This document shows, in pieces, positions 10,483 through 62,510 of a stretch of DNA of 64,000 nt. The DNA is from Peronospora farinosa (taxonomy: Eukaryota > Oomycota > Peronosporomycetes > Peronosporales > Peronosporaceae). Below the pieces are notes generated by a model, which worked only from the letters and a program-made list of their open reading frames with translations, searched no databases and was not told the DNA's origin. The stretch is taken from positions 62,001 to 126,000 of the forward strand of contig CANTFK010000663.1 of assembly GCA_947646735.1 (NCBI GenBank). The letters are read 5' to 3'. How positions within the stretch are numbered: position 1 is the stretch's first letter; every line of letters starts with the position of its first letter. The position numbers were made by a program, and so were the translations under genes.

Positions 10483-11083
10483 TGTAACAGGACATCTAGT
10501 TACACGCAAACATTATTTAATATACTTAATGTTTGGTCTAAAAGTATCCATGACTTCTTTTGATCTGTCACTTGGGTGCGATACACAAACGTGATCCACC
10601 CTCGTAGATGTGATATCCATTGATGGATTTACATGAGAAGGGATGACGCTAGTTGAAGCTAGGCATCGCGACGTCTCCGAAGGACGTCATTCGCAAGCTT
10701 AAATCTAGATTTAAGCTCATGCGTCAGGATACGCTTCTAAAGAGTCGCGTATCCGATCTATATACATATATAGCCAATCAGTAGTTAGGGTTTATGTTTA
10801 ATTCTAATTCATTAATTATAGCTCAGTCTTGAATTCAATAACACATACGCACCACGCACGAGAAGCTGGAAAAGCTTCTGCGTGACGTCGGTAACTTCTT
10901 GTTTAAAAGTTCGTTGCTCTCTCGCTTAAGCGAGAGGCAATTGGTGGTACGACTGCTTAAGCAGTCGACCAACCACACAACCACCCTCGCACGCGAAGGT
11001 AAGACGGTCTGAACGCTTCTTCGCTTGTGCTGAAGGTGTGTGCTAGGTAGCACGAGGCAACTTCGTAGAAGTGCCCGTCTACA
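10483..11083 (+). repeat. 5' LTR of Gypsy element 1
   Basis: 601 bp, starts TGTAACAGGACATC and ends CCGTCTACA. It shares U3 variants with the 3' LTR (e.g. ACGTCTCCGAAGG) that the left-arm LTR lacks. It differs from both in the R/U5 part (GAATTCAATAAC, GTGCTAGGTAGC). Its inner hairpin arms (CTCTCGCTTAAGCGAGAG) are shorter than in the other two LTRs. Confidence 0.92.
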
Positions 11084-11085
11084 CT

Positions 11086-11103
11086 TGGTAGCACGAGTAG
11101 TCC
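11086..11103 (+). other. Primer-binding-site-like sequence of Gypsy element 1
   Basis: Two bases after the 5' LTR comes TGGTAGCACGAGTAGTCC. The TGG start and position fit a PBS that pairs with the CCA end of a tRNA. The implied acceptor strand (UCGUGCU plus discriminator A) does not match a tRNA I can name, so the primer is unassigned. Confidence 0.5.
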
Positions 11104-11199
11104 TTCCCACGACCCGTCTCTCTGAGCGTGCGTGTGGTTAAGATGGTCCTTAACATGGACTGAAGTGACTTCCCTCACCTCTCCCAACATCATAGGGAG

Positions 11200-12026
11200 T
11201 TGGCAGAGCATATGGCGCAGGGACATGGTGAACAAGCCCTGGTCAACCTCTTGCATTGTCCTCCTGAGCAACATGTTGCTCAGTTGGAGCCATTTGAGGC
11301 GTTTGTGCTCGGACAGCGTAGAAACGCGTCCGAGGTAAACAGCCAAGCTACGGCTGAGTCCACTAAGACTCAGGATGAGGTTTTGCGTGGATCAAGCTCG
11401 GAACGAGGCGCTCGACAGAGCTTTTGAGACGCTCTCTGCCCGGCCTGCTCAACCGAGGCCCATTAGGATGGACCCTCCGAAGTTCGATGGAACTAGCCCT
11501 CACACGATTGTTCACTGGCTATAAGCAGTTGAGCAATGTGGAGTGGCACAGCTCATTGAAGACGACACCAGAATGGTGTCGTATGCCATGTACAACTTGC
11601 GTGGCAAAGCGTCAGAGTGGGTATACTCTGCGCTGATGGCAAATGCTGATGCGTTTCCATCATGGGCGATCTTTAAGACAAAGATTCGCGCCATGTATCA
11701 GCCGCCTAACAACGAAGTGTTGCTTATGGCGCTCTTCTTTGGAGCACGACAGGCGAAACGCTCTTTGCAAGAATTTTGTGCAGGAGATGCGTTCGCTGTC
11801 GGCGTCCATCAATGGGGAACCGATACCAGAACGTATCAAGGTGGCCACGTTCATGAATGGACTTAGGCACGGCCCATCGTGTCAGGCCCTTTTCAGAAAG
11901 GTGCCAGCGACGATGGAAGAGGCAATTGACATTGCCTTAGTTGAGGAGCAATCCTACAACAGCGCCTCGGCGACAGCCTATTACAGGCCATCGTCCGAGA
12001 AGTCTAATGCCACTCCATGGAGTTAG
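11200..12026 (+). pseudogene. Gypsy gag, frameshifted (element 1)
   Basis: A start-like frame at 11200 (MAEHMAQGHGEQ...) runs to 11427 and the coding then changes frame. The capsid-like stretch with GKASEWVYSALM and MYQPPNN lies near 11543-11800, and PERIKVATFMNGLRHG in a further frame near 11820-11880. A stop (TAA) interrupts around 11521-11523. The nucleocapsid zinc knuckle near 12040-12090 is degenerate (YYKCGKRGSMMTC, missing part of C-x2-C-x4-H-x4-C). The order matches Ty3/Gypsy gag. Confidence 0.75.
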
Positions 12027-15000
12027 TCGATGCAGATGTGATCTACTACAAGTGCGGCAAGCGAGGCAGTATGATGACTTGCCGCTATGTCAAAGTTGCT
12101 GCTGGTGCTAAGGCAGCAAGCAAAAGGTCTCCCAACCCGAAGGGAGGTGCGAAAAACCAGCGTGCACGACGCACGGGTTCAGCACCTGCCCAAGATGGGT
12201 CGGAAAAAAAATGCGGGAGCGCAGTAGGGGCGGGATGTCCTACTGTCACGGACTCTGAAGCTACCCCTAAGTTCAGAGTGATCGAACAAATGGGTAGCAT
12301 AGTCCCTGAGGTTCCTAAAGGTAGGACCTCAACCCTTTTGGTCTATAGCGCTCGAGTACGAGGCTATGACCAAGTGATGATCCTTCTAGTTGATTCGGGT
12401 GCATCACAAAACGTTGTGAAACTCGCGGCTCTGAAAAAGAGTCCGGCGAGTTATGAGTCGCTTTGCCAGGATGGCAAGCGAGAAGAGGCGATCGTTCGTT
12501 TAGCGAACGGCGCGCTCGGTAAATCGGAGGGAGTTCAAGTTGAACTTGTCTTCAGTTTCAGTGACTTCTCTTGTAAAGAGAAGTTCACAGTGCTAGGTAT
12601 GGAGAGTCCGTATGAACTCATCTTAGGCATGCCTTGGCTGGCTAAACACCAACCATGGATAGACTGGACACCGGAAAGGATGTGCTCTTGCGAGAGGCTT
12701 ATGTGGCTGATGTTATGTCCAACACAGTCGAGGGTGCGATGACGGTATGTCAATCGACACCAGGAACTACCCAGCTCGAAAGGAGTGGTGTAGTTAAAAG
12801 TGCCCTGACAGAAAGTTAGGTGACACATATTCCTACCCAGGTCGAAATGACTGGTGTAGTGAATGGGACGATGACAGGTAGTCATGCGTCCAATAGTCCT
12901 GCACAGAGCCGAGAGCCTGTGGCAGTTGATGGTGGGCTGACAGGAAGTCAAGCGCCACAAGAACCGGCACAGAGCCAAGAGCCTGGTGCGGTTGGAAGGA
13001 GTGCGTTAGCTGAGATAGCAACGACACCTTCTTCCAGGTCAAAGGTCGTGGTGACTCGAAGAACGAGAACCAGACGTATTAAGACGATCAAGGGCACGTC
13101 GAAACGAGTGACCCTTGGATCAGTCTCGGTCCAAGAGGACGGACCTACGAACGAGTTGTTCGAGGCCGTCGAAGACAAAATGCTGGAGGCATCCTCAGTT
13201 GAGGTGCTCCAACTTGTCTTGGCATCTGCCGAGGAGATAGTAAATCTCTCGGAGATGACGTGGGATCTGTTCCTGTCCGAACTAAAGGAAGGAAAGATCC
13301 ACGAGATAGTCGCACCAGTTCCAGAAGAGAACGTGATGGACTGTTGCTCGTCGTCCACAATGGACGAGAGCGTTTTGGAGACCGACAAAAAGAAACGGTA
13401 TGCTGCTCAAGGCTGGGATGCCTTGAAGGACAGCCCGTTCTATGATGTTCTGTGGAAACACCGTGATGTGTTTCCAGCAGAAGTGTCGAGCCGCCTACCG
13501 GCCAATAGGGGCATCAGGCACGAGATTGACCTGGAGCCTGGCACCAAGTATTGTGTGACCAGGCAATGGCCGCTGCCGAAGGAACAAGTCGATTACATCG
13601 ATGAGTTCTTCGACAAGCGAGCTAAGGCGGGACATGTACGTGAGAGCAAGTCGCCTCACTGCAGCCCGACCTTCTGTGTGCGTAAAGCAACAGGTGGATG
13701 GCGCGTGGCTCATGCTTATAATAAGCTGAACACGACCACCATTCCGGCTCAAACGCCGATCCCGCGGAAAGATGTATTGTTGAATTCCATGGGAAAGTCA
13801 ACTATCTTTTCCGCGTTGGATCTGAAAGTTGGCTACTATCAAGTTCTCGTGAAGATACTGATGTAGCGAAAACGGCAGTAAGCACCCCAAGCGGTATGCT
13901 GTGGGAGTGGCTTGCGATACCACAAGGGTTGAAAAATGCTCCGGCAACATTCAACTGAGTGGTGGCTTACGTGATGCGTCAGCACCGTGCCTACGCGCCC
14001 CATTACTTTGACGATGTATTCGTGCATAGTAGGGCGGAGGACGGTCTGAGCGCGATAGAGTCGCACAAGCGTCATTTAGACGCTGTGTTGCCGACTCTGG
14101 GTGACGCCCAATTATACGTTAACTTGCAAAAGTGCGTAATAGAGGTCCCCGAGATACCGGTGCTAGGCTGCAGCGTAGGTATACATGGTGTACGAGCAGA
14201 CCCAGAAAAGGTAAAAGCTGTAAAGGAATGGCCAGTCCCACGACATGTGAAGGATCTGCGCCAATTCCTTGGGATCGCTAATTACTTGCATAAGTACAGC
14301 AAGAATTATGCGGAGCAGACCAAGCCATTGTCTAACCTTTTGAAAAAGGATACAGAATGGACTTGTTCAAAGGAACAAGAAGATGTGTTCACTTCAGTGA
14401 AGCAATCTCTTGTAGAGGCACCGATTTTGGCATTGCCAGACGCGGATAAGTCCTTTATCGTCGTCTGCGATGCAAGCAATTTTGCAATCGGCAGCGCGCT
14501 CATGCAGAAGGATGACAACGGCATTGAACGTGTCATTTCTTATCAGTCTCGGCTTTTAAAAGCTGCAGAGCTGAATTACCCTGTGCATGAGAAGGAGCTA
14601 CTTTCAATTAAGTATGCCCTTGTAAAGTTTCGGGTGCACCTCTTGGGCACCGGACCATTTGTGGTTTATACGGATCATATATCACTGCGGACCTCCATAA
14701 ATTCACCGCATGTATCGTCTAGAATGGCGAGATGGCTGACATTCTTCTCTGAATTTAATTTCAAAGTTGAATATAAGCCGGGTAAGTCGAATGTCTTGGC
14801 TGACGCATTATCGCACAGACCAGACTTCGAGGCAAGACACCAGGAAAGTGTGTCTCGTGCGAAAGCACAAGTTGAGTCGTCAACATTGGCAGCCATGAAG
14901 GCCTACCATGTGACGAGTTCAATGGCCTCCGATATCTGGCGACAAGGTTCGTCCTGACTGTAGCCCAAGGAGGGCTACAGTCAGGACGAACCTTGTCGCC

Positions 15001-17037
15001 TACTGTTGGATCATTTTGATGGAGGAAAGTTTAGCCTTCCGTCGTACCTGAAAGCGAAACTAAATCGCTTTAGTTGCAGTGGTGGCCTGTTATGGCATCA
15101 ACTGTCACCCTGTGATCCCTTGAGAATCTATGTCCATCATGACACAAATCTCAAGCTGATGATACTTCACGAATGCCATGATGCGCCATTTAGTAAGCAT
15201 CTGGGCCGTGAAAAGAAATTCTTACGAGTGTCAGAGGAATTTTGGTGGCCCCACCTATCTCGGTGGGTGGCCAACTATATTCGCTCTTGCGAAGAATGTC
15301 AGCGCATAAAGCATGCACCTTCTAGCAGTGCACCACTGAAGCCACTGCCGATATTAACGGATTGTTGGAAGTCGGTCAGTTTGGACTTCATGTTTGTCTT
15401 ACCGCCTGACCATAAAGGCAGGACGGGGCTCGTTGTCTTTGTAGACAGACTGAGCAAGATGGTGCGTTAAGCACCATGTAGCACCAAGATCTCAGGAAAA
15501 GAGGCTGCCCTCTTGTTTCTCAATCACGTGTACAGACTACACGGGATGCCCGAGTTCATAGTATCGGACCGGGCTCCGCGTTTTACGTCGGGTTTTTGGC
15601 GACATGTGTTTGAGCTGCTGGGAAGCAGCTCCACATGTTAACAGCCGATCATCCCCAAACTGATTTCCAAACAGAATGGGCCAATCGAGTCGTGGCGGAT
15701 GTGTTGCGTACAGTAGCGACTCCTAAAGAATGGAGCAAGCAATTGCCATTCGTGAAGCTCGCTATTAATAATAGTGTTCACGCCAGTACGGGTGAAACAC
15801 CGTTTTACATTAACGGACTGCGTCATCCTCGAACGCCAATCTCGTTTGTACGCAGCCCGAGTCTTAGTGGGGGAGGGCCCCTCACTTCGCTCGGTGCGAA
15901 TGCCAAAGAGGGCCCAGGTTGGCCTAGTGACACTGCTAATTTAGCAATGGTCACGACACCTATAGGTGTCACAGAGAAGGCACGGCAAGATGTGCCAGTG
16001 CTCCTTGACGATGACACTATAGTGTTATCAACAGCTTCGACCCATGAACGACCTCTTGGAGGCGTCAAAGGCGAGCTGGATGCTAAAAGCGTGATTGAAC
16101 TCAGCGCTTTGTGGATGAGTGATTAGCCATCACACGTAAAGCCCGTGACGCGATGGCAAGCGCACAGGACAAGCAAAAACAATATGCGGACCAACATGGT
16201 CGCAAAAACAATGAACACTTTAGTGTGGGGGACAAAGTGCTATTAAGTACTGCTACCCTACCTAAACATGCAATTTCTGTACTACCTGGTGGTACTACTA
16301 AACTATTGACCCGATTCATTGGACCCTTTACAGTGGTTGAAGAAGTTTGAGACCTAAACTATAGGCTCACTCTCCCACCGTATATAGACGCACCCCGTAT
16401 TTTACGTGGGTCGTCTGAAACAGTATCTTGATCCAGAAATGATCACATATCCACATTGGTCTAACGAGACCGATGGTGACGTCGACTATGAGTCGAGCGG
16501 CGCGGCCGATCAGGAGACGAGGAAGCCGACAGGCTCACCGTATACGAACGAGGCGATAGAGGACTCGGCGATCGAGGAAGACTCCGCGCTTGACGCTGGT
16601 CTCTCATCACCAGTCGCTCTAGGATGTCCAAACGGGTCTTCAGGCGGTCATACCCCTGACGGTCCCTCGCCCTCACATCGCGCAGATCCGAGGTCAGTCG
16701 CGAGACTTGATTCTCGAGATCTGTCACCTGCCTCTTCAGTCCAGCAGACTCAGCCGCGACTGAACAGCAGCAGGGTAGGCAGCCGCGAGTAGGTGGGCGT
16801 AATCGCCACTCCTATCGGGCGCCACCTGTGTTGGTGGACACGGAAGGGAATACGCGCTTCCTTGTTGGAAGGCTGTTAGCCCACCGGTTTGTGAAGCGAA
16901 AGCTCCAAATCCTTGTCCAGTGGAAGGGTTACCCAACGAGCTTTGACTCGTGGGAGCCTGTGGACGCTTTGCGCGTCGATGTGCCTGGGCTGGTGGATGC
17001 TTATGTGAAGCAGCACCAGCTGTCGTCTTTCTGCTAG
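12017..17037 (+). pseudogene. Gypsy pol: protease, RT, RNase H, integrase, chromodomain (element 1)
   Basis: Recognisable pieces in order: aspartic protease LLVDSGASQNVV (about 12387-12422); RT from about 13480, with KSPHCSPTFCVRK, the stop TAG at 13864-13866 and YFDDVFVHS (about 14002-14028); RNase H FIVVCDASNFAIGSAL (14455-14503) and YTDHISLRT; integrase zinc finger HECHDAPFSKHLG...CEECQRIKH (about 15170-15310), core LDFMF and SDRAPRFTSGFW (about 15570-15600), then TEWANRVVADVL. A polypurine-like linker and SVGDKVLLSTATL follow. The C-terminal chromodomain (16828-17037; LVGRLLAHRF, LQILVQWKGYPTSFDSWEPV) ends at a TAG at 17035-17037. At least three stops or frameshifts break it. The last ~580 bp overlap the antisense gene. 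Confidence 0.85.
14938..15000. repeat. Perfect 29-bp inverted repeat with 5-nt loop inside pol
   Basis: Left arm 14938-14966 and right arm 14972-15000 are exact reverse complements around AAGGA. The right arm and what follows (YSQDEPCRLLLDHF) match the ordinary coding sequence of element 2 near 59920-59955. Element 2 has no left arm there. The left arm is therefore an extra inverted copy inserted between the RNase H and integrase regions, and it creates stops in pol. Confidence 0.9.
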
Positions 17038-17890
17038 GTCCGGAAGGACTAGCAGAAAAAGCGTGGCGAGAATCAATTGGGGGTCGCTTAACACCCAAGA
17101 TTTCATGCGCACGCTTCATGGCGAAGCTGATTCGCTGCGATCGTTGTTTCGTTGCATCTACATGCAAGGTAACACGGCGCCGAAGTTCAGCTTCGTATTC
17201 GTCGGCTGTTTCGTTAGAACGCAGCACGACTGGAATTAAGAAAGCACGACCAAGTGCTTTGCCCTGCTTTTCACACGGGAAAGACGCTATGAAATTTATG
17301 AGCTTCTATAGTTGCACGCTGCAAAAGCGCTGCACTAGACCCATCTGAGTTCATCCACTCAAATGGAGGTGGCATTGGTGGCAAGCCACCACTCACGTAG
17401 CCGCCCTCGCGACGGTGGGATAGTGAGTCCGAAGGTGTACTCGGTGGAGCTTTAAGCTCACACTCACCTGAGTCTGACTCTCCTTTATGCATCAGCTTGA
17501 GAAGTTACATCTAATTGAGTCGCGACTGCTTTTTTTGGAGTAGCGCGCTCATTCTTAGTCGCTGCGCTCGTAGGCGCAGGCGACGAGGTCTTACCTTCGC
17601 TTGCAGGAAGCATACAAGCTTCCTCAAGGACGGGTGCCTCAAATGATGGGGACATATGTCCCATTAACGCGCTTTGCTCATATCCACTTCGGGGTGATGG
17701 GAATGGCGTGCTCTTATTGTAGTCTACAATGAGAGATGGATCTTCATCCACATTATAGTGAGAAGGAAGATTCGTCTCACTGCCTGAAGCACTTTGCGAC
17801 GGCTGCGAATCATCGCGGCGCGTGCGCTTCGAGTTGCACTGCATGGCGCCTTTGCAGCGACCCATCAGCCTTACCACATTTCGGTGGCAT
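16461..17890 (-). CDS. Conserved antisense ORF of the Gypsy family (element 1 copy, frameshifted)
   Basis: Starts with MPPK at 17890, about 105 bp inside the 3' LTR, on the strand opposite gag-pol, and ends at 16461 (about 470 codons). Pieces in order: a basic N-terminus (SKRTRRDDSQPS); an acidic/Ser-rich part with IVDYNKSTPFPSP; a Pro-rich part with GGLPPMPPP; TADEYEAELRRRVTLHVDA; a Gly/Ser part with GQGFGAFASQTGG; a heptad-like coiled coil (VTDLENQVSRLTSDL...); and a tail rich in RS/SR ending HRRHHRSR. Frameshifts near 17865, 17490 and between 17271 and 17227 break it. The same protein, with a different set of breaks, is antisense in element 2. I do not recognise the family; the coiled coil plus SR tail suggests a nuclear or RNA-binding role, which is inference. 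Confidence 0.65.
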
Positions 17891-17983
17891 GAGTACTGAG
17901 CAGACTAAAGCGGCGCGTTTAAAACGGCTCGCAAGTCTCTCTGTCTCTTAGGCGATGTTTTACAAAATGTAAACATCGTTCTA

Positions 17984-17996
17984 AAACGGGGGATGG
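17984..17996 (+). other. Polypurine tract of Gypsy element 1
   Basis: AAAACGGGGGATGG ends directly at the TG of the 3' LTR (17997). The second element has the same GGGGATGG next to its LTR (complement at 56935-56942). This fits the plus-strand primer of reverse transcription. Confidence 0.75.
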
Positions 17997-18599
17997 TGTA
18001 ACAGGACATCTAGTTACACGTAAACCTTAAGTAATATACTTATTGTTTGGTCTAAAAGTATCCATGATTACTTTTGACCTGTCACTTGGGTGCGATACAC
18101 AAACGTGATCCACCCTCGTAGATGTGTTATCCATTGATGGATTTACATGAGAAGGGATGACGCTAGTTGAAGCTAGGCATCGCGACGTCTCCGAAGGACG
18201 TCATTCGCAAACTTAAATCTAGATTTAAGCTCATGCGTCAGGATACGCTTCTAAAGAGTCGCGTATCCGATCTATATACATATATAGCCAATCAGTAGTT
18301 AGGGTTTATGTTTAATTCTAATTCATTAATTATAGCTCAGTCTTGAATTTGCTAACACCGAAGCACCACACACGAGAAGCTGGAAAAGCTTCTGCGTGAC
18401 GTCGATGCCTTCTTGTTTTAGAAGTTCGTTGCACTCTCGCTTAAGCGAGAGTGCAAATGGTGGTACGACTGCTTAAGCAGTCGACCAACCACACAACCAC
18501 CCTCGCACGCGAAGGTAAGACGGTCTGAACGCTTCTTCGCTTGTGCTGAAGGTGTGTGCTAAGTAGCACGAGGCAACTTCATAGAAGTGCCCGTCTACA
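17997..18599 (+). repeat. 3' LTR of Gypsy element 1, mosaic
   Basis: 603 bp. Up to about 18234 it shares diagnostic bases with the element's own 5' LTR (CCCTCGTAGATGTG, ACGTCTCCGAAGG, AGCTCATGCGTCAGG). From 18350 on it shares those of the left-arm LTR (GAATTTGCTAAC, GTGCTAAGTAGC, TTCATAGAAG). The 115 bp in between are the same in all three LTRs, so the crossover lies there. After 18599 comes the hAT remnant that also flanks the left-arm LTR. Confidence 0.88.
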
Positions 18600-56302: not shown

Positions 56303-56934
56303 TCTAGACGGGCGCTTTAAAGAAGCTGCCACGTGCTACGCTGACATACACCTTCAAGCACGCGAGGAAACGGTTAGACCATTTAACTTCTGCGTGCGGT
56401 GGTGGTGGTGTTGGTCGGCGCTAAAGCGCAGTACCAACCGTTGTCGGTCGCTTAAAGCGATCCGCACAACGAACTGCTAAGACAAGAGCCCCATTTACGA
56501 CACGCAGAAGCTTATTCAGTTTATCGTGTGCAGTGAACGGTAATTAGTAAATTCAAGACTAATTTATATCTGATAGAAATAATTTGATATAAATCTAACT
56601 AATGATTGGTTGAATGTAAAGATTGAATACGCGTCTCTTTAGAAGCGTATCCCTACGTGCGAGCTTAGCATATATTAAGCTCGCTGATAACGGGTTCTAA
56701 AGCGTCACCATGACGTTTAGTCCCAAATGGGTGTCATCCCCGTTATAGTAATTTTTTTAAAAAAAATAAAATTATTGTTTAATTTAAATCCATCCATGGA
56801 TATCACATTCACAAGGGTGGGTCACATTGACGTGCCTCGCCCAAGTGGGAGGTCTAAGGGACCACGTTATTTATAAGACGTTTCAGTTATGTATCTTATA
56901 CTTAACGGACTCGTGTAACTATTGGCTTGTTACA
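56303..56934 (-). repeat. 3' LTR of Gypsy element 2
   Basis: 632 bp, homologous to the element 1 LTRs but clearly diverged. The outer end reads TCTAGACGGG on the plus strand where TGTAGACGGG is expected. It keeps the pair of hairpins in different sequence (GCGCTAAAGCGC, TCGCTTAAAGCGA near 56416-56462). Confidence 0.85.
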
Positions 56935-56988
56935 CCATCCCCTCTTTAAGACAATTTTTACATTTTGTAAAACATCGAAAGCAAGAAG

Positions 56989-58491
56989 ATGCCACCAAAA
57001 CGTGATGAGGCTGATGGGGTGCCTGCAAAGACTTCCATGCAGACTCGCACAAAGCGTACGCGTCGCGATAACTCGCAGCCATCGTTAAGTGTCTGTGACA
57101 ACGCCGACATCTAATGTCAGCTTGCCAGAAGAGAACACTGGTCCATCCCACGATGGTGCGGATGAGAACTTGTCTCTCATTGTTGACTACAATGAGAGCA
57201 CGCGATTGCCATCACCTCAAAGTGGTGACGAGCACAGTGCTCTGATGGTACATTTGTCCCCATCCTTTGAGGTACTTAATCTTCAGGAAGCTTTCATGCT
57301 TCCTGACAGCGAGGGCCATGCCTCGTCGTCTGCGCCAACGAGCGCAGCGATCACAAATGAACGCGCTGCTTCGAACGAAACAGCCGCGACTCAACAGCAG
57401 GTTGGGGATTCGAAATTGTCCGCCTCTGTTAACCCTACGTCTGCAGTCTTGTCAATCCATAACGGAGAGTCAGACTCGGGCGAGGGTGAGCAAAAATCCT
57501 ATTCGACTTCACGGTCGACCTCACTAGCACGCCGTCGCAAGGGCGGCTACGCGAGTGATGGCTTGCCACCAATGTCACCACCATCCAAGTGGTCACGCTC
57601 GAGTGGTACTAGTGCGACGCTCCTAAAGAGCGTGCCACTATTGACGATAAAAACTATTCAACGTCTTTCCATCATAGAAAAAGCAGGGCAAAGCACTAGG
57701 TCGTGCTTTTACTATCCCCGTTGTGTTGCGTTCTAACGATACAACCGACGAATACGAAGCAGAGTTCCTGCGCCGTGTTAAAATGCATGTAGATGCAGTA
57801 AACTAGCGGTCGCAGCAAATCAGCTTCACAATGGCGCGTGCGAGGGAAATATTGGGTGGTAACGTACCCCCAGCTCCTCCTCGTCACGCTGCCCCTGCTA
57901 GTCCATCAAGACTTAGCAAAGCGAGTGCAGCTGGTGCTTCTGCTCGTAAGAAGACATTAGCCCAGGCACGTCGATACGCAACGCGTCGATCGGTTCCCAA
58001 GAGTCGAAACTCTTCGGGTTTCCTTTCTATAGGACAAGGATTTGAAGCTTTTGCTTCACAAACCGGTGGGCCAACATCCTTCCAACAAGGAAGTGTGTGT
58101 TCTCACTCGCATCCATCAATACAGGTGGCGCCCTACAGGAGCGGCGATTACGCCCAACTTTTTGCGGCTTCTTTTCCTGTTGTCGTTCAGTTGCAGACGG
58201 AGATCGCTGCGCTGAAGAAGAGGTGTTTGATCTGTCGAGTCAAGTCTCACGACTGACTTCGGATTTACTTGCTTTGAATACGAGGGATCGTCGGGGTATG
58301 ACCGCCTGAAGCTCCGTTTGAACCTGCATGAGCGACTGGTGATGAGATACTCACGTCAAGCGCGGAGGCCTCCTCGTTCACCGAGTACTATCCCGAGCCT
58401 TCGCTCGTATACGGGAAGCCTTTCGGCTTCTTTCTTGTCTGATCGGGAACGACGCTCGACTCACAGTCGACGTCACCATCGGTCTCGTTAG
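56989..58491 (+). CDS. Conserved antisense ORF of the Gypsy family (element 2 copy, broken)
   Basis: Starts MPPKRDEADGVPAK at 56989, 55 bp inside the LTR, and ends HRRHHRSR-stop at 58489-58491, collinear with the antisense frame of element 1. Shared blocks: KRTRRDNSQPS, LSLIVDYNESTRLPSP, HNGESDSGEGE, GGYASDGLPPMSPP, TDEYEAEFLRRVKMHVDA, GQGFEAFASQTGG, YRSGDYAQLFAASFP, LQTEIAALKKR (coiled coil), LSSQVSRLTSDL, YDRLKLRLNLHERLVMR, then the SR-rich tail. Breaks here (near 57096, 57660, a stop near 57804, and near 58225) differ from those in element 1. The longest intact part is 57089-57736. Confidence 0.65.
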
Positions 58492-61400
58492 ACTGATGTG
58501 AATATGTGATCTCTTCCGGATCAACATACCGTTTCAGACGTTTCAGACGACCCACGTAAAATACGGGGTGCGTCTTCATATACGGTGGGAGAGTGAGCCT
58601 ATAATTTAGGTCTCCAACTTCTTCAACCACTGTAAAGGGCCCAATCAATCGGGGCAATAGCTTAGTGGTACCACCAGGTAGTACAGAGATTGCATGTTTA
58701 GGTAAGGTAGCAGTACTCAATAGCACTTTGTCCTCCTCACTAAAGTGTTCATTGTTTTTGCGACCATGCTGGTCTGCATATTGTTTTTGCTTGTCCTGTG
58801 CGCTTGCCATCGCGTCACGGGCTTTACGTGTGATGGCTAATCACTCATCCACAAAGCGCTGAGCTTCGTCACGCTTTTAGCATCCAGCTCGCCGATGACG
58901 CCTCCAAGAGGTCGTTCATGGGTCGACGCTGTTGATAACACCATAGTGTCATCGTCAAGAAGCACTGGCATTTCTTGCCGTGCCTCCTCTGTGACACCTA
59001 TAGGTGTCCTGACCACTACTAAACTAGCAGTGTCACTAGGGCAACCTTGGCCCTCTTAGGCATTCGCACCGAGCGAAGTGAGGGGCCCTTCCCCACTAAG
59101 ACTCGGGCTGCGTAAAAACGAGACTGGCGTTCGAGGATGACGCAGTCCGTTAATGTAAAACGGTGTTTCACCCGTACTGGCGTGAACAATGTTATTGATA
59201 GCGAACTCCACGAATGGCATTGCTTGCTCCATTCTTTGGGAGTTGCTACTGTACGCAACACATCTGCCACGACTCGATTGGCCCGTTCCGTTTGGCCATC
59301 GGTCTGGGGATGATCAGCGGTTGACATGTGGAGCTTGCTACCCAGCAATTTAAATACATGACGCCAAAACCCCGACGTAAATCGCGGATCCCGATCCGAT
59401 ACTATATATTCGGGCATTTCGTGTAGTTGGTACACATGATCCAGAAACAAGAGGGCAGCCTCTTTTCCTGAGATCTTGGTGCTACATGGTGCCAAATTCA
59501 CAATCTTGATCAGTCTGTCTACAAAGACGACGAGCCCCCTCCTGTCTTTATGGTTAGGGGGTAAGCCAAACATGAAGTCCAAACTGAACGACTTCCAACA
59601 TTCAGTTGGAATCGGCAGTGGCTTCAGTGTCGCACTACTAGAAGGTGCAGAGTTAATGCGCTGACACTTTTCGCAAGAGCGAATATAGTTGACCACCCAT
59701 GGGGCCACCAAATTCCTCTGACACTCGTAAGAATGTCTTTTCACGGCCGAGATACCCACTAAATAGCGCATAATCAGCTTGAGATCTGTGTCATGAGGGA
59801 CATTGATTCTCAAGGGATCCCAGGGTGACAGCTGATGCCATAGTAGACCATCACTGTGATTGGAGCGATCTAATTTCGCTTTCAGGCGTGAAGGAGTGGT
59901 AACCTTTCGTCCACCAAAATGATCCAACAGCAGGCGACAATTTTCGTCCTGACTGTAACACTCCTATATATCGGAGGCCTATGAGCTCGTCACATGGTTG
60001 GCCTTCATGGATGCCAATGTTGACGACTCAGCTTGTGGTTTCGCACGAGACACACTTTCTTGGTGTCTTGCCTCGAAGTCTGGTCTGCGCGATAACGCGT
60101 CAGCCAAGACATTCGACTTACCCGGCAGTCGAAGCCGAGGTTGCCTCGTGGGAGCGGAGCCTGGCCCAATAGGCAACGTCGGGAAGGCCTCGCCAGCTGG
60201 CCGAAGATGAACACGAAGCAGCGACAGCTGCTCTGCAGACGTTTCAATATAGCCTTCCCCAGTCGCCCGACTGTCAGCGTCGGCAATCCTGCTGGCCATG
60301 CTCTCTGCAAACGTCTGCAGAGCAACAGCCGCAGCGTCGTGTTCATCATCGACCAGCTGGCGAGGCAGAGAATAATATTTATCCATCTCGCCATTCTAGG
60401 CGAGAGGTGATGTGAATTGATAGCGGTCCGCAGTGATGCGTGATCCGTATAAACCACAAAAGTTTCGGTGCCCAAGAGGTGCACCCAAAACTTTACAAGG
60501 GCATACTTGATTGAAAGTAGCTCCTTTTCATACACAGGGTAATTCAGCTCTGCGGCTTTTAAAAAGTCGAGACTGATACGAATTGACACGGTCAATGCAG
60601 ATGTCATCCTTCTGCATGATACCGCTGCCGATTGCAAAATTGCTTGCATCGCAGACGACGATAAAGGGTTTATCCGCGTCTGACAATGCCAAAACCGGTG
60701 CCTCCACAAGAGATTGCTTTACTGAAGTGAACGCATCTACATGCTCCTTTGAACAAGTCCATTCTACATCCTTTTTCAAAGGGTCAGACAATGGCTTAGT
60801 CTACTCCGCATAATTCTTGCTGTAATTATGCAAGTAATTAGCGTGCCCAAGGAATTGGCGCAGATCCTTCACATTACGTGGGAATGGCCATTCCTTTACA
60901 GCCTTTACCTTTTCTGGGTCTGCTCGTACACCATGTGCATCTACTATGCAGCCCAATACAGGTCCCCTATTACGCACTTTTGCAAGTTAACGTATAATTG
61001 GGCGTCACCCAGATTCTGCAACACAGCGTCTAAATGACGTTTGTGCGACTCTATCGCGCTCAGACCGTCCTCCGCCCTACTATGCACGAACACGTCGTCA
61101 AAGTAATGGAGCGCGTAGGCACGGTGCTGATACATCACGTGAGCCACCACTCGGTTAAATGCATCACAAGCCACTTCCACAGCATACTGCTTCGGAAGCT
61201 TACTGCCATTTAGCTACATCAGTATCTCATATGAGACCTTGAAAGTAGCTATCCTTTAGGTTCAACGCGAAAAAGATAGTTGACTTCCCCATTGAGTACA
61301 ACAGGATATCTTTCCGCGGAAATGGACTTTGCGCCGGAATGGCGGCCGTGGTCAGCTTATTATAAGCATGAATCACGCGCCATCCACCTGTTGCTTTACG

Positions 61401-62222
61401 CACTCAGAAGGTAGAGCTGCAGTGAGGCGACTTGCTCTCACGTACATGTCCCGCCTTGGCTCGCTTGTCGAAGAACTCATCGATGTAATCGACTTGTTCC
61501 TTCGGCAGTGGCCATTGCCAGGTCACACAATACTTGGTGCCAGGCTCCAGGTCAATCTCGTGCCTGATGCCCCTATCGGCCGGTAGGCGTCTCGGCACTT
61601 CTGCTGGAAATACATCACGGTGTTTTCACAGAACATCATAGAACGGGCTGTACTTCAAGGCATCCCAGCCTTGAGCAGCGAACCGTTTCTTCTTGTCGGT
61701 CTCCGAGACGCTCTCGTCCATTGTTGATGAAGAGCAACAGTCCACCACGTTCTCTTCTGGAACTGGTGCGACTATCTCGTGGATCTTCCCTTCCTTTAAT
61801 TCGGACAGGAACAGATCCCACGTCATCTCTGAGAGATTTACTATCTCCTCGGCAGATGCCAAGACAAGTTGGAGCATCTCAACGGAGGATGCCTCCGGCA
61901 TTTTGTCTTCAACGGCCTCGAACAACTCGTTCGTAGGTCCGTCCTCTTGGACCGAGACTGATCCAAGGGTCACTCGTTTCGACGTGCCCTTGATCGTCTT
62001 AATACGTCTGGTGCTCGTTCTTCGAGTCACCACGACCTTTGACCTGGAAGAAGGTGTCGTTGCTATCTCAGCTAACGCACTCCTTCCAACCGCACCAGGC
62101 TCTTGGCTCTGTGTCGGTTCTTGGGGCGCTTGACTTCCTGTCAGCCCACCATTAACTGCCACAGGCTCTCGGCTCTGTGCAGGACCATTGGACGCATGAC
62201 TACCTGTCATCGTTCCATTCAC
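57913..62222 (-). pseudogene. Gypsy pol remains (element 2)
   Basis: Minus-strand pieces collinear with element 1: linker (62222-61626, nearly intact and highly similar), RT (61598-60944, with YFDDVFVHSR), RNase H (about 60790-60410), integrase (59927-59019, including CEKCQRIN, LDFMFGLPP and SDRDPRFTSGFW) and a chromodomain ending DALRIDVPGLMSSYEQKHQ, with a stop at 57913-57915. Interrupted by stops, e.g. one inside the chromodomain before KGNPKSFDSWEP. Confidence 0.8.
60126..60382. repeat. Foreign block with ~57-bp inverted repeat inside RNase H of element 2
   Basis: Between PGKSNVLADAL and MARW the sequence does not match element 1. It contains an imperfect inverted repeat, about 60187-60243 against 60308-60366 (roughly seven mismatches in 57). 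Both arms, each read on its own strand, encode a similar peptide (QLVDDEHDAAAVALQTF on minus; QLAEDEHEAATAALQTF on plus). Confidence 0.7.
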
Positions 62223-62339
62223 TACACCAGTCTCCGCGAGCTAGGTAGAAATTTGTGCCATCGGACTTTCTGTCAGGATACTTCCAGAACTGCAATAGTA
62301 ATAGCGGTCATAAATGGTTACTATCGATCGTAATCGCGA

Positions 62340-62510
62340 TCGTATCTCAGCCGATCCGATCGACATGGATACAAAATACGATCGGATCAACATGAGTATT
62401 CGATCGGATCGACATGAGTACAAATACGATCGAGCCAACATGGATACAAATACAATTGGATCGACATGGATACAAGTACGATCAGACCGACATGGGTAGA
62501 AATACGATCA
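62340..62510. repeat. ~26-bp minisatellite
   Basis: About six to seven imperfect units of the form GGATCGACATGGATACAAAT followed by ACGATC, rich in CGATCG dyads. It lies just past the truncated 5' end of Gypsy element 2. Confidence 0.85.

What the first reader, a model, noticed from the sequence alone, without database searches (positions are those of the whole stretch)
16461..17890. A conserved antisense gene in a chromodomain Gypsy family
Two diverged elements in this window, in opposite orientations (10483-18599 and 56303-62275), both carry a ~470-codon frame on the strand opposite gag-pol. It starts MPPK 55-105 bp inside the 3' LTR and ends HRRHHRSR-stop. Block order, coiled coil, SR-rich tail and both ends are kept, although each copy has its own frameshifts. 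Independent breaks on a shared scaffold suggest that the ancestors had an intact antisense gene under selection. Antisense genes driven from the 3' LTR are known in some retroviruses (HTLV-1 HBZ), but I know of no named protein like this one. A regulatory or RNA-binding role is a guess.
Basis: partly seen in the sequence, partly recalled or inferred. Interest (0 to 1): 0.88.

Follow-up and report, generated by a model that had tools for sequence, protein, structure and literature searches.

The report
Antisense gene in downy-mildew retrotransposons
A retrotransposon family in a downy-mildew genome carries, on the strand opposite its usual genes, a conserved gene for an unknown and probably nuclear protein, laid out like the extra antisense genes known from some plant retrotransposons.

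Summary
The frame is real. In copy A it runs antisense to gag-pol from an ATG at 17890, 106 bp inside the 3' LTR edge, to a stop ending at 16461. The genome, very probably Peronospora farinosa, holds at least 150 scored matches; open ~481-codon copies exist. P. effusa has a 94% identical protein; relatives of unnamed origin are 46-62% identical.

Selection is shown by other genomic copies, not by the two window copies, whose differences look neutral. Outside pol, variants seen in one copy look neutral (197 nonsynonymous/69 synonymous/6 stops); variants shared by three or more copies are depleted of amino-acid changes (35/31/0, p=0.0009). gag and pol show stronger constraint. Inside the pol overlap, constraint may switch strands: chromodomain in the sense frame, preceding linker in the antisense frame (coiled coil, SR tail). 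That rests on few sites and weakens when two-copy variants are added.

Most likely it is an accessory nuclear regulator, working like plant antisense ORFs or HBZ; transcription, localisation and binding are untested. [quoted passage not shown] this protein family and host group were not found in the papers searched.

The parts
16461..17890 (-). antisense frame, copy A (ATG at 17890, TAG ending at 16461), broken by frameshifts
16711..17037 (+). end of pol in copy A, with chromodomain (Pfam match at about 16864-17010)
   Evidence: PF00385, E 1.1e-9, residues 52-100 of the piece
16461..16863 (+). pol stretch between the integrase region and the chromodomain; its other strand codes the coiled coil and SR-rich tail
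17891..17996 (-). leader of the antisense frame up to the LTR edge, including the purine-rich tract
17997..18599 (+). 3' LTR, copy A
10483..11083 (+). 5' LTR, copy A
12008..16789 (+). broken pol pieces of copy A: weak protease match, RT, RNase H, integrase zinc-binding domain
56989..58491 (+). antisense frame, copy B, heavily decayed
58388..62240 (-). pol remnants of copy B
   Evidence: frames resembling those of copy A; no separate domain search was made

Best explanation
A Ty3/Gypsy-type LTR retrotransposon family of Peronospora carries an accessory protein-coding gene on the strand opposite gag-pol. Shown: a ~481-aa frame, open in a number of copies, with purifying selection on its own coding frame, at a near-constant distance from the 3' LTR and overlapping the 3' end of pol. 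Inferred: it is transcribed towards pol from a promoter in or beside the 3' LTR; the product is a basic, largely disordered nuclear protein that pairs through its coiled coil, touches nucleic acid or RNA-processing factors through its basic and SR-rich parts, and regulates the element itself (its transcription, its RNA, or nuclear steps before integration).
For: Outside pol, single-copy variants 197N/69S/6 stops against shared (>=3 copies) 35N/31S/0, p=0.0009; central block 166-285 82/23/2 against 10/14/0, p=0.0007; the sense frame that continues pol shows no such shift (36 of 39 copies). Same direction in 38 copies, p=0.002, and in 19 elements, 122/51/5 against 30/27/0, p=0.015. Open copies. 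Relatives at 46-94% identity keep the start and the main blocks. P0011 reads the LTR-edge and purine-tract stretch upstream of MPPK, as the window does in another frame. pI 10.0, basic ends, acidic 41-165; confident long helix around 391-430.
Against: No RNA or protein data. Copies A and B alone look neutral. Selection is weaker than on gag (shared 3/17/0) or pol (26/75/0). Including variants seen in two copies weakens the test (outside pol p=0.0018; linker p=0.13). Regions and frames were tested without correction; copies were picked by similarity to the window's own piece, and 8 of 39 for openness. The nuclear regulatory role rests on composition and analogy only. No promoter was found: an initiator-like motif in 1 of 4 copies.
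Confidence: 0.6

Rival explanations
1. The antisense frame is a by-product: it stays open because of base composition and constraint on the opposite pol strand, and is not a gene.
For: About 40% of the frame lies opposite pol. Only 2.9% of random changes create a stop in this frame outside pol, so short-term openness is cheap. Copies A and B alone look neutral.
Against: The signal is strongest outside pol, and in the antisense frame; the other five frames gave p of 0.057 to 0.89 in the 38-copy version. Relatives at 46-62% identity are open over about 480 aa, though a protein database lists open frames by construction.
Confidence: 0.08
2. What matters is the antisense RNA, not the protein: it pairs with the genomic RNA and feeds or restrains silencing.
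For: Antisense non-coding RNAs of retrotransposons and their possible silencing role are reviewed in PMC7264820 (parts 1 and 2 of 3 read).
Against: Selection in the antisense reading frame and amino-acid blocks kept in relatives need a protein. An additional RNA role is not excluded.
Confidence: 0.1
3. The gene is a structural or particle protein (an extra Gag-like or packaging factor) rather than a nuclear regulator.
For: Basic, coiled-coil and SR-rich parts would also suit RNA packaging. The central block is helical.
Against: The element has its own gag under strong constraint. No Gag family match in the antisense protein, no significant fold match. Production from a separate antisense RNA does not suit bulk assembly (inference).
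Confidence: 0.12
4. The frame was captured from a host gene or is the remnant of another element nested there.
For: No clear match to other element proteins, so its origin is unknown.
Against: Near-constant leader, about 106 bp in most of the 26 copies where it could be read and shorter in one divergent copy. The 17 relatives found are in Peronospora or in sources without an organism name. An old capture is not excluded.
Confidence: 0.1

Closest known systems
Antisense additional ORFs between pol and 3' LTR (aORF-3R) of plant elements: Grande gene23, RIRE2, Retand ORF4, PvRetro13 (PMC7264820, parts 1-2 of 3 read; PMC11963269, passages seen)
   Same: Position between pol and 3' LTR, antisense orientation, kept in related families, function unknown; Grande's product is nuclear and transcribed from its own promoter according to PMC7264820
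   Different: No TRP28 domain match; oomycete host; the frame overlaps pol and the chromodomain; no sequence relationship found
Boty of Botrytis cinerea (named in PMC7264820)
   Same: Antisense ORF in a non-plant element
   Different: Protein not compared here; fungal host
HTLV-1 HBZ (antisense gene from the 3' LTR; passages in PMC11963269 and PMC7264820; its bZIP domain is recalled)
   Same: Antisense gene read inwards from the 3' LTR; acidic stretch, basic stretches and a C-terminal coiled coil make a similar layout
   Different: Retrovirus; no sequence relationship found; here an SR-rich tail follows the coiled coil; antisense promoter untested
Chronos, oomycete Ty3/Gypsy elements with chromodomain and extra RNase H (PMC5348765, passages seen)
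   Same: Oomycete Ty3/Gypsy-type element with a chromodomain
   Different: No second RNase H match in the window's pol pieces; the word antisense does not occur in that paper's main text

Membership tests
antisense aORF between pol and 3' LTR (aORF-3R) | ORF antisense to gag-pol | tested here: met
[quoted passage not shown]
   about 60% of it lies there; the remainder overlaps the end of pol
antisense aORF between pol and 3' LTR (aORF-3R) | present in most copies of the family | tested here: inconclusive
   54 of 121 RT matches have a listed antisense match downstream, one more; lists are capped and 12 further places could not be read
antisense aORF between pol and 3' LTR (aORF-3R) | coding conservation | tested here: met
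Retand-type antisense protein | TRP28 domain (PF04195) | tested here: not met
   not among the 5 Pfam families with E<=1
HBZ-type antisense regulator | antisense transcription from the 3' LTR | not testable with these tools
   no RNA data
HBZ-type antisense regulator | bZIP domain (recalled) | tested here: not met
   no bZIP family among matches with E<=1; a long helix with coiled-coil-like weak matches only
Chronos | second, plant-related RNase H | tested here: not met
   only RT_RNaseH-type matches in the window's broken pol pieces; a decayed or split domain could be missed
Chronos | chromodomain | tested here: met
   PF00385, E 1.1e-9
Chromovirus clade | place in an RT tree | not tested
   no RT tree was made

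The most novel reading that the evidence does not exclude
Two genes share the 3' end of this element by dividing it between the strands: pol keeps the chromodomain, while the stretch between integrase and chromodomain is free to vary as pol protein and is kept because its other strand codes the coiled coil and SR tail of an antisense-encoded nuclear regulator of the element. This would be an antisense control gene in oomycete retrotransposons, arisen independently of the plant and retroviral ones.
Probability: 0.3. Interest if true: 0.75.

Novelty: new variant of a known kind. Interest (0 to 1): 0.55.

Why it matters
Antisense genes next to the 3' LTR are known from some retroviruses and plant elements, and their role in retrotransposons is not settled (PMC7264820). 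An apparently unrelated protein at the same place in oomycetes would suggest that this position is used repeatedly for accessory genes. With at least 150 scored matches in one 46.85 Mb genome, the family lets selection on an antisense overlap be measured directly. These frames also sit in public protein sets as unnamed Peronospora proteins and should be labelled as element genes.

Tried and rejected
Selection from the two window copies alone: neutral, so not usable as evidence. A first run of the pol control was wrong: pol was read out of frame and badly aligned stretches were included; it showed no constraint on pol. One search used the right frame and masked stretches under 85% identity; only one search is used. 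A fixed-loop test of the short inverted repeat in the leader found only 6-8 of 12 bases paired in the 27 of 31 copies where it could be placed, and its best-scoring windows often missed the repeat, so no conserved hairpin is claimed. An oomycete initiator-like motif (consensus recalled) was found in 1 of 4 copies, so no promoter is claimed. IMG/VR scan for relatives: none. Fold search of the central block: nothing at E<=0.001. A sense env-like gene between pol and LTR: no sense frame there has shared variants significantly depleted of amino-acid changes; the nearest has p=0.057. Paper searches listed no title or abstract start describing this gene; only listings were seen for most of those papers.

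Full report
What is there. Copy A (10483-18599) has an LTR pair of about 600 bp and broken pol pieces with RT, RNase H and integrase zinc-binding matches, a weak protease match, and a chromodomain at the end (PF00385, E 1.1e-9). On the other strand an ATG at 17890 opens a frame that ends with a TAG at 16461. It starts 106 bp inside the LTR edge and overlaps the last ~0.57 kb of pol, whose stop ends at 17037. Copy B carries the same frame at 56989-58491 on the + strand, far more decayed, with a 54 bp leader.

The genome. The window is part of a 46.85 Mb assembly of 274 contigs. A database protein named Peronospora farinosa, 97% identical over 66% of the frame, sits on a contig of 33,723 bp, the length of contig C95 here, so the genome is very probably P. 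farinosa, a downy mildew. With a 189-aa piece of the frame as query, 150 places were scored of 720 candidates, at 81-100% identity. With a distant relative as query, 44 of 89 scored matches are full-length in one frame and 23 of these have no stop. Of 39 copies whose DNA was read, 14 have the whole frame free of breaks: 7 of 31 not chosen for openness, 7 of 8 chosen as stop-free.

Is it selected? Variants among copies were sorted into those seen in one copy (mostly changes after insertion) and those shared by three or more (mostly changes in lineages that went on moving). Outside pol, the antisense frame has 197 nonsynonymous, 69 synonymous and 6 stop variants seen once, and 35, 31 and 0 shared (p=0.0009; 36 of 39 copies, leaving out copy B, a divergent copy L016 and L014, one of a duplicated pair). 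The central block 166-285 alone gives 82/23/2 against 10/14/0 (p=0.0007). The sense frame that continues pol shows no such shift (171/65/35 against 47/12/7). With two-copy variants added, the result outside pol is p=0.0018. In an earlier version with 38 copies the antisense frame gave p=0.002 and the other five frames 0.057 to 0.89. Controls, in 19 of 22 elements (copy B, L032 and L045 dropped): gag 108/51/5 against 3/17/0; pol 616/235/35 against 26/75/0; antisense frame outside pol 122/51/5 against 30/27/0, p=0.015. The antisense gene is thus under detectable but weaker selection than gag and pol. Against it: copies A and B compared alone look neutral (70/33/4; N/S 2.12 against an expected 2.39). 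Tests were not corrected for their number, and copies were picked by similarity to the window's own antisense piece.

The overlap. Opposite the chromodomain, shared variants are 1N/5S in the sense frame and 6N/0S in the antisense frame. Opposite the linker before it they are 25N/4S/1 stop in the sense frame and 15N/15S/0 in the antisense frame. The linker differs between the two frames (p=0.005), and the sense frame differs between linker and chromodomain (p=0.002). This suggests that the two genes divide the overlap. It is not firm: single against shared gives p=0.056 for the antisense linker and 0.025 for the sense chromodomain, and with two-copy variants added these become 0.13 and 0.58. 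Over the whole overlap neither frame shows significant constraint in the 19-element set (sense 60/39/2 against 17/7/0, p=0.48; antisense 65/27/4 against 13/9/0, p=0.30). In the four full-length distant relatives the stretch opposite the chromodomain is 35-52% identical, against 55-75% in the central block and 53-79% in the coiled coil; the low-complexity stretch 71-165 is equally low, 31-56%.

Relatives. A search of 5.8 billion proteins gave 14 relatives, and 17 with the alignment: 7 named P. effusa, 1 P. farinosa, 9 without names. P. effusa has a 481-aa protein at 94% identity. Four full-length relatives at 46-62% keep the MPPK start, a DPSLIVDY-like block, a PIPVVL..NET..YE block and the coiled-coil region. 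In P0011 the reading upstream of MPPK (YTIPPLKNEFTFCKS) resembles what the window encodes across the LTR edge and purine tract in another frame (YTIPRFRTMFTFCKT), which suggests the same placement; this is inferred from translated letters.

The protein. In the open copy used as reference: 481 aa, pI 10.0, basic N-terminus (pI 11.0), acidic 41-165 (pI 4.5), basic central block, SR-rich tail (pI 12.0). AlphaFold2 gives mostly low confidence, helices at 193-269, and a helix 366-435 with mean pLDDT above 90 over 391-430; pTM 0.20. The central block alone: pTM 0.52, mean pLDDT 56, no fold match at E<=0.001. No Pfam family reaches its cut-off (the best match in any of 7 relatives is E 0.0013 to a leucine-zipper family, cut-off not shown), and no PDB sequence relative at E<=1.

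How it most likely works. An antisense transcript starting in or near the 3' LTR gives a pairing nuclear protein that regulates the element. Composition, layout and the analogy with Grande gene23 and HBZ support this; transcription, pairing, localisation and target are all inferred. Particle or anti-silencing roles are not excluded.

What is known. Antisense ORFs between pol and the 3' LTR are described in Grande, RIRE2, Retand and PvRetro13 and in fungal Boty, with unknown function (PMC7264820, parts 1-2 of 3 read). Retand antisense proteins carry TRP28 (PMC11963269, passages), not found here. Oomycete Chronos elements have a chromodomain and a second RNase H (PMC5348765, passages); no second RNase H was found here. 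The searches listed no paper describing this gene. It is thus a new protein family and host group within a known kind, with an unusual overlap.

Open points.

Noticed in passing
L059 (contig C235:7000-10000) and six rows on C235 (7257-15084): Head-to-tail array with a ~1.46 kb unit made of the pol end and most of the antisense frame; two adjacent units read are 99.8% identical.
   Followed up: partly
L042 and L043 (contig C267); similar opposite-strand pairs on C18, C42, C46, C57, C215, C266, C273: Copies lie in inverted pairs a few kb apart with near-equal scores. L042 and L043 match at 97.9% over 7.9 kb, flank beyond the LTR included. Inverted duplications or an assembly effect; 2% divergence speaks against a simple artefact.
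   Followed up: partly
window 17930-17960 and the same place in other copies: Short inverted repeat TTTACA-TTT-TGTAAA in the antisense leader beside the purine tract. In the divergent L016 both arms differ yet still match (TTTTCA/TGAAAA). A simple pairing score did not support it.
   Followed up: partly
L031, L033, L049: In 3 of 20 fetched elements the LTRs match copy A's LTR only from position 206 on, so LTR subfamilies with a different first third exist around the same antisense gene.
   Followed up: no
window 62241-62507: Beyond the end of copy B's pol remnant a frame shows repeated units (SYFYPCRSDRT...), looking like a short tandem repeat.
   Followed up: no
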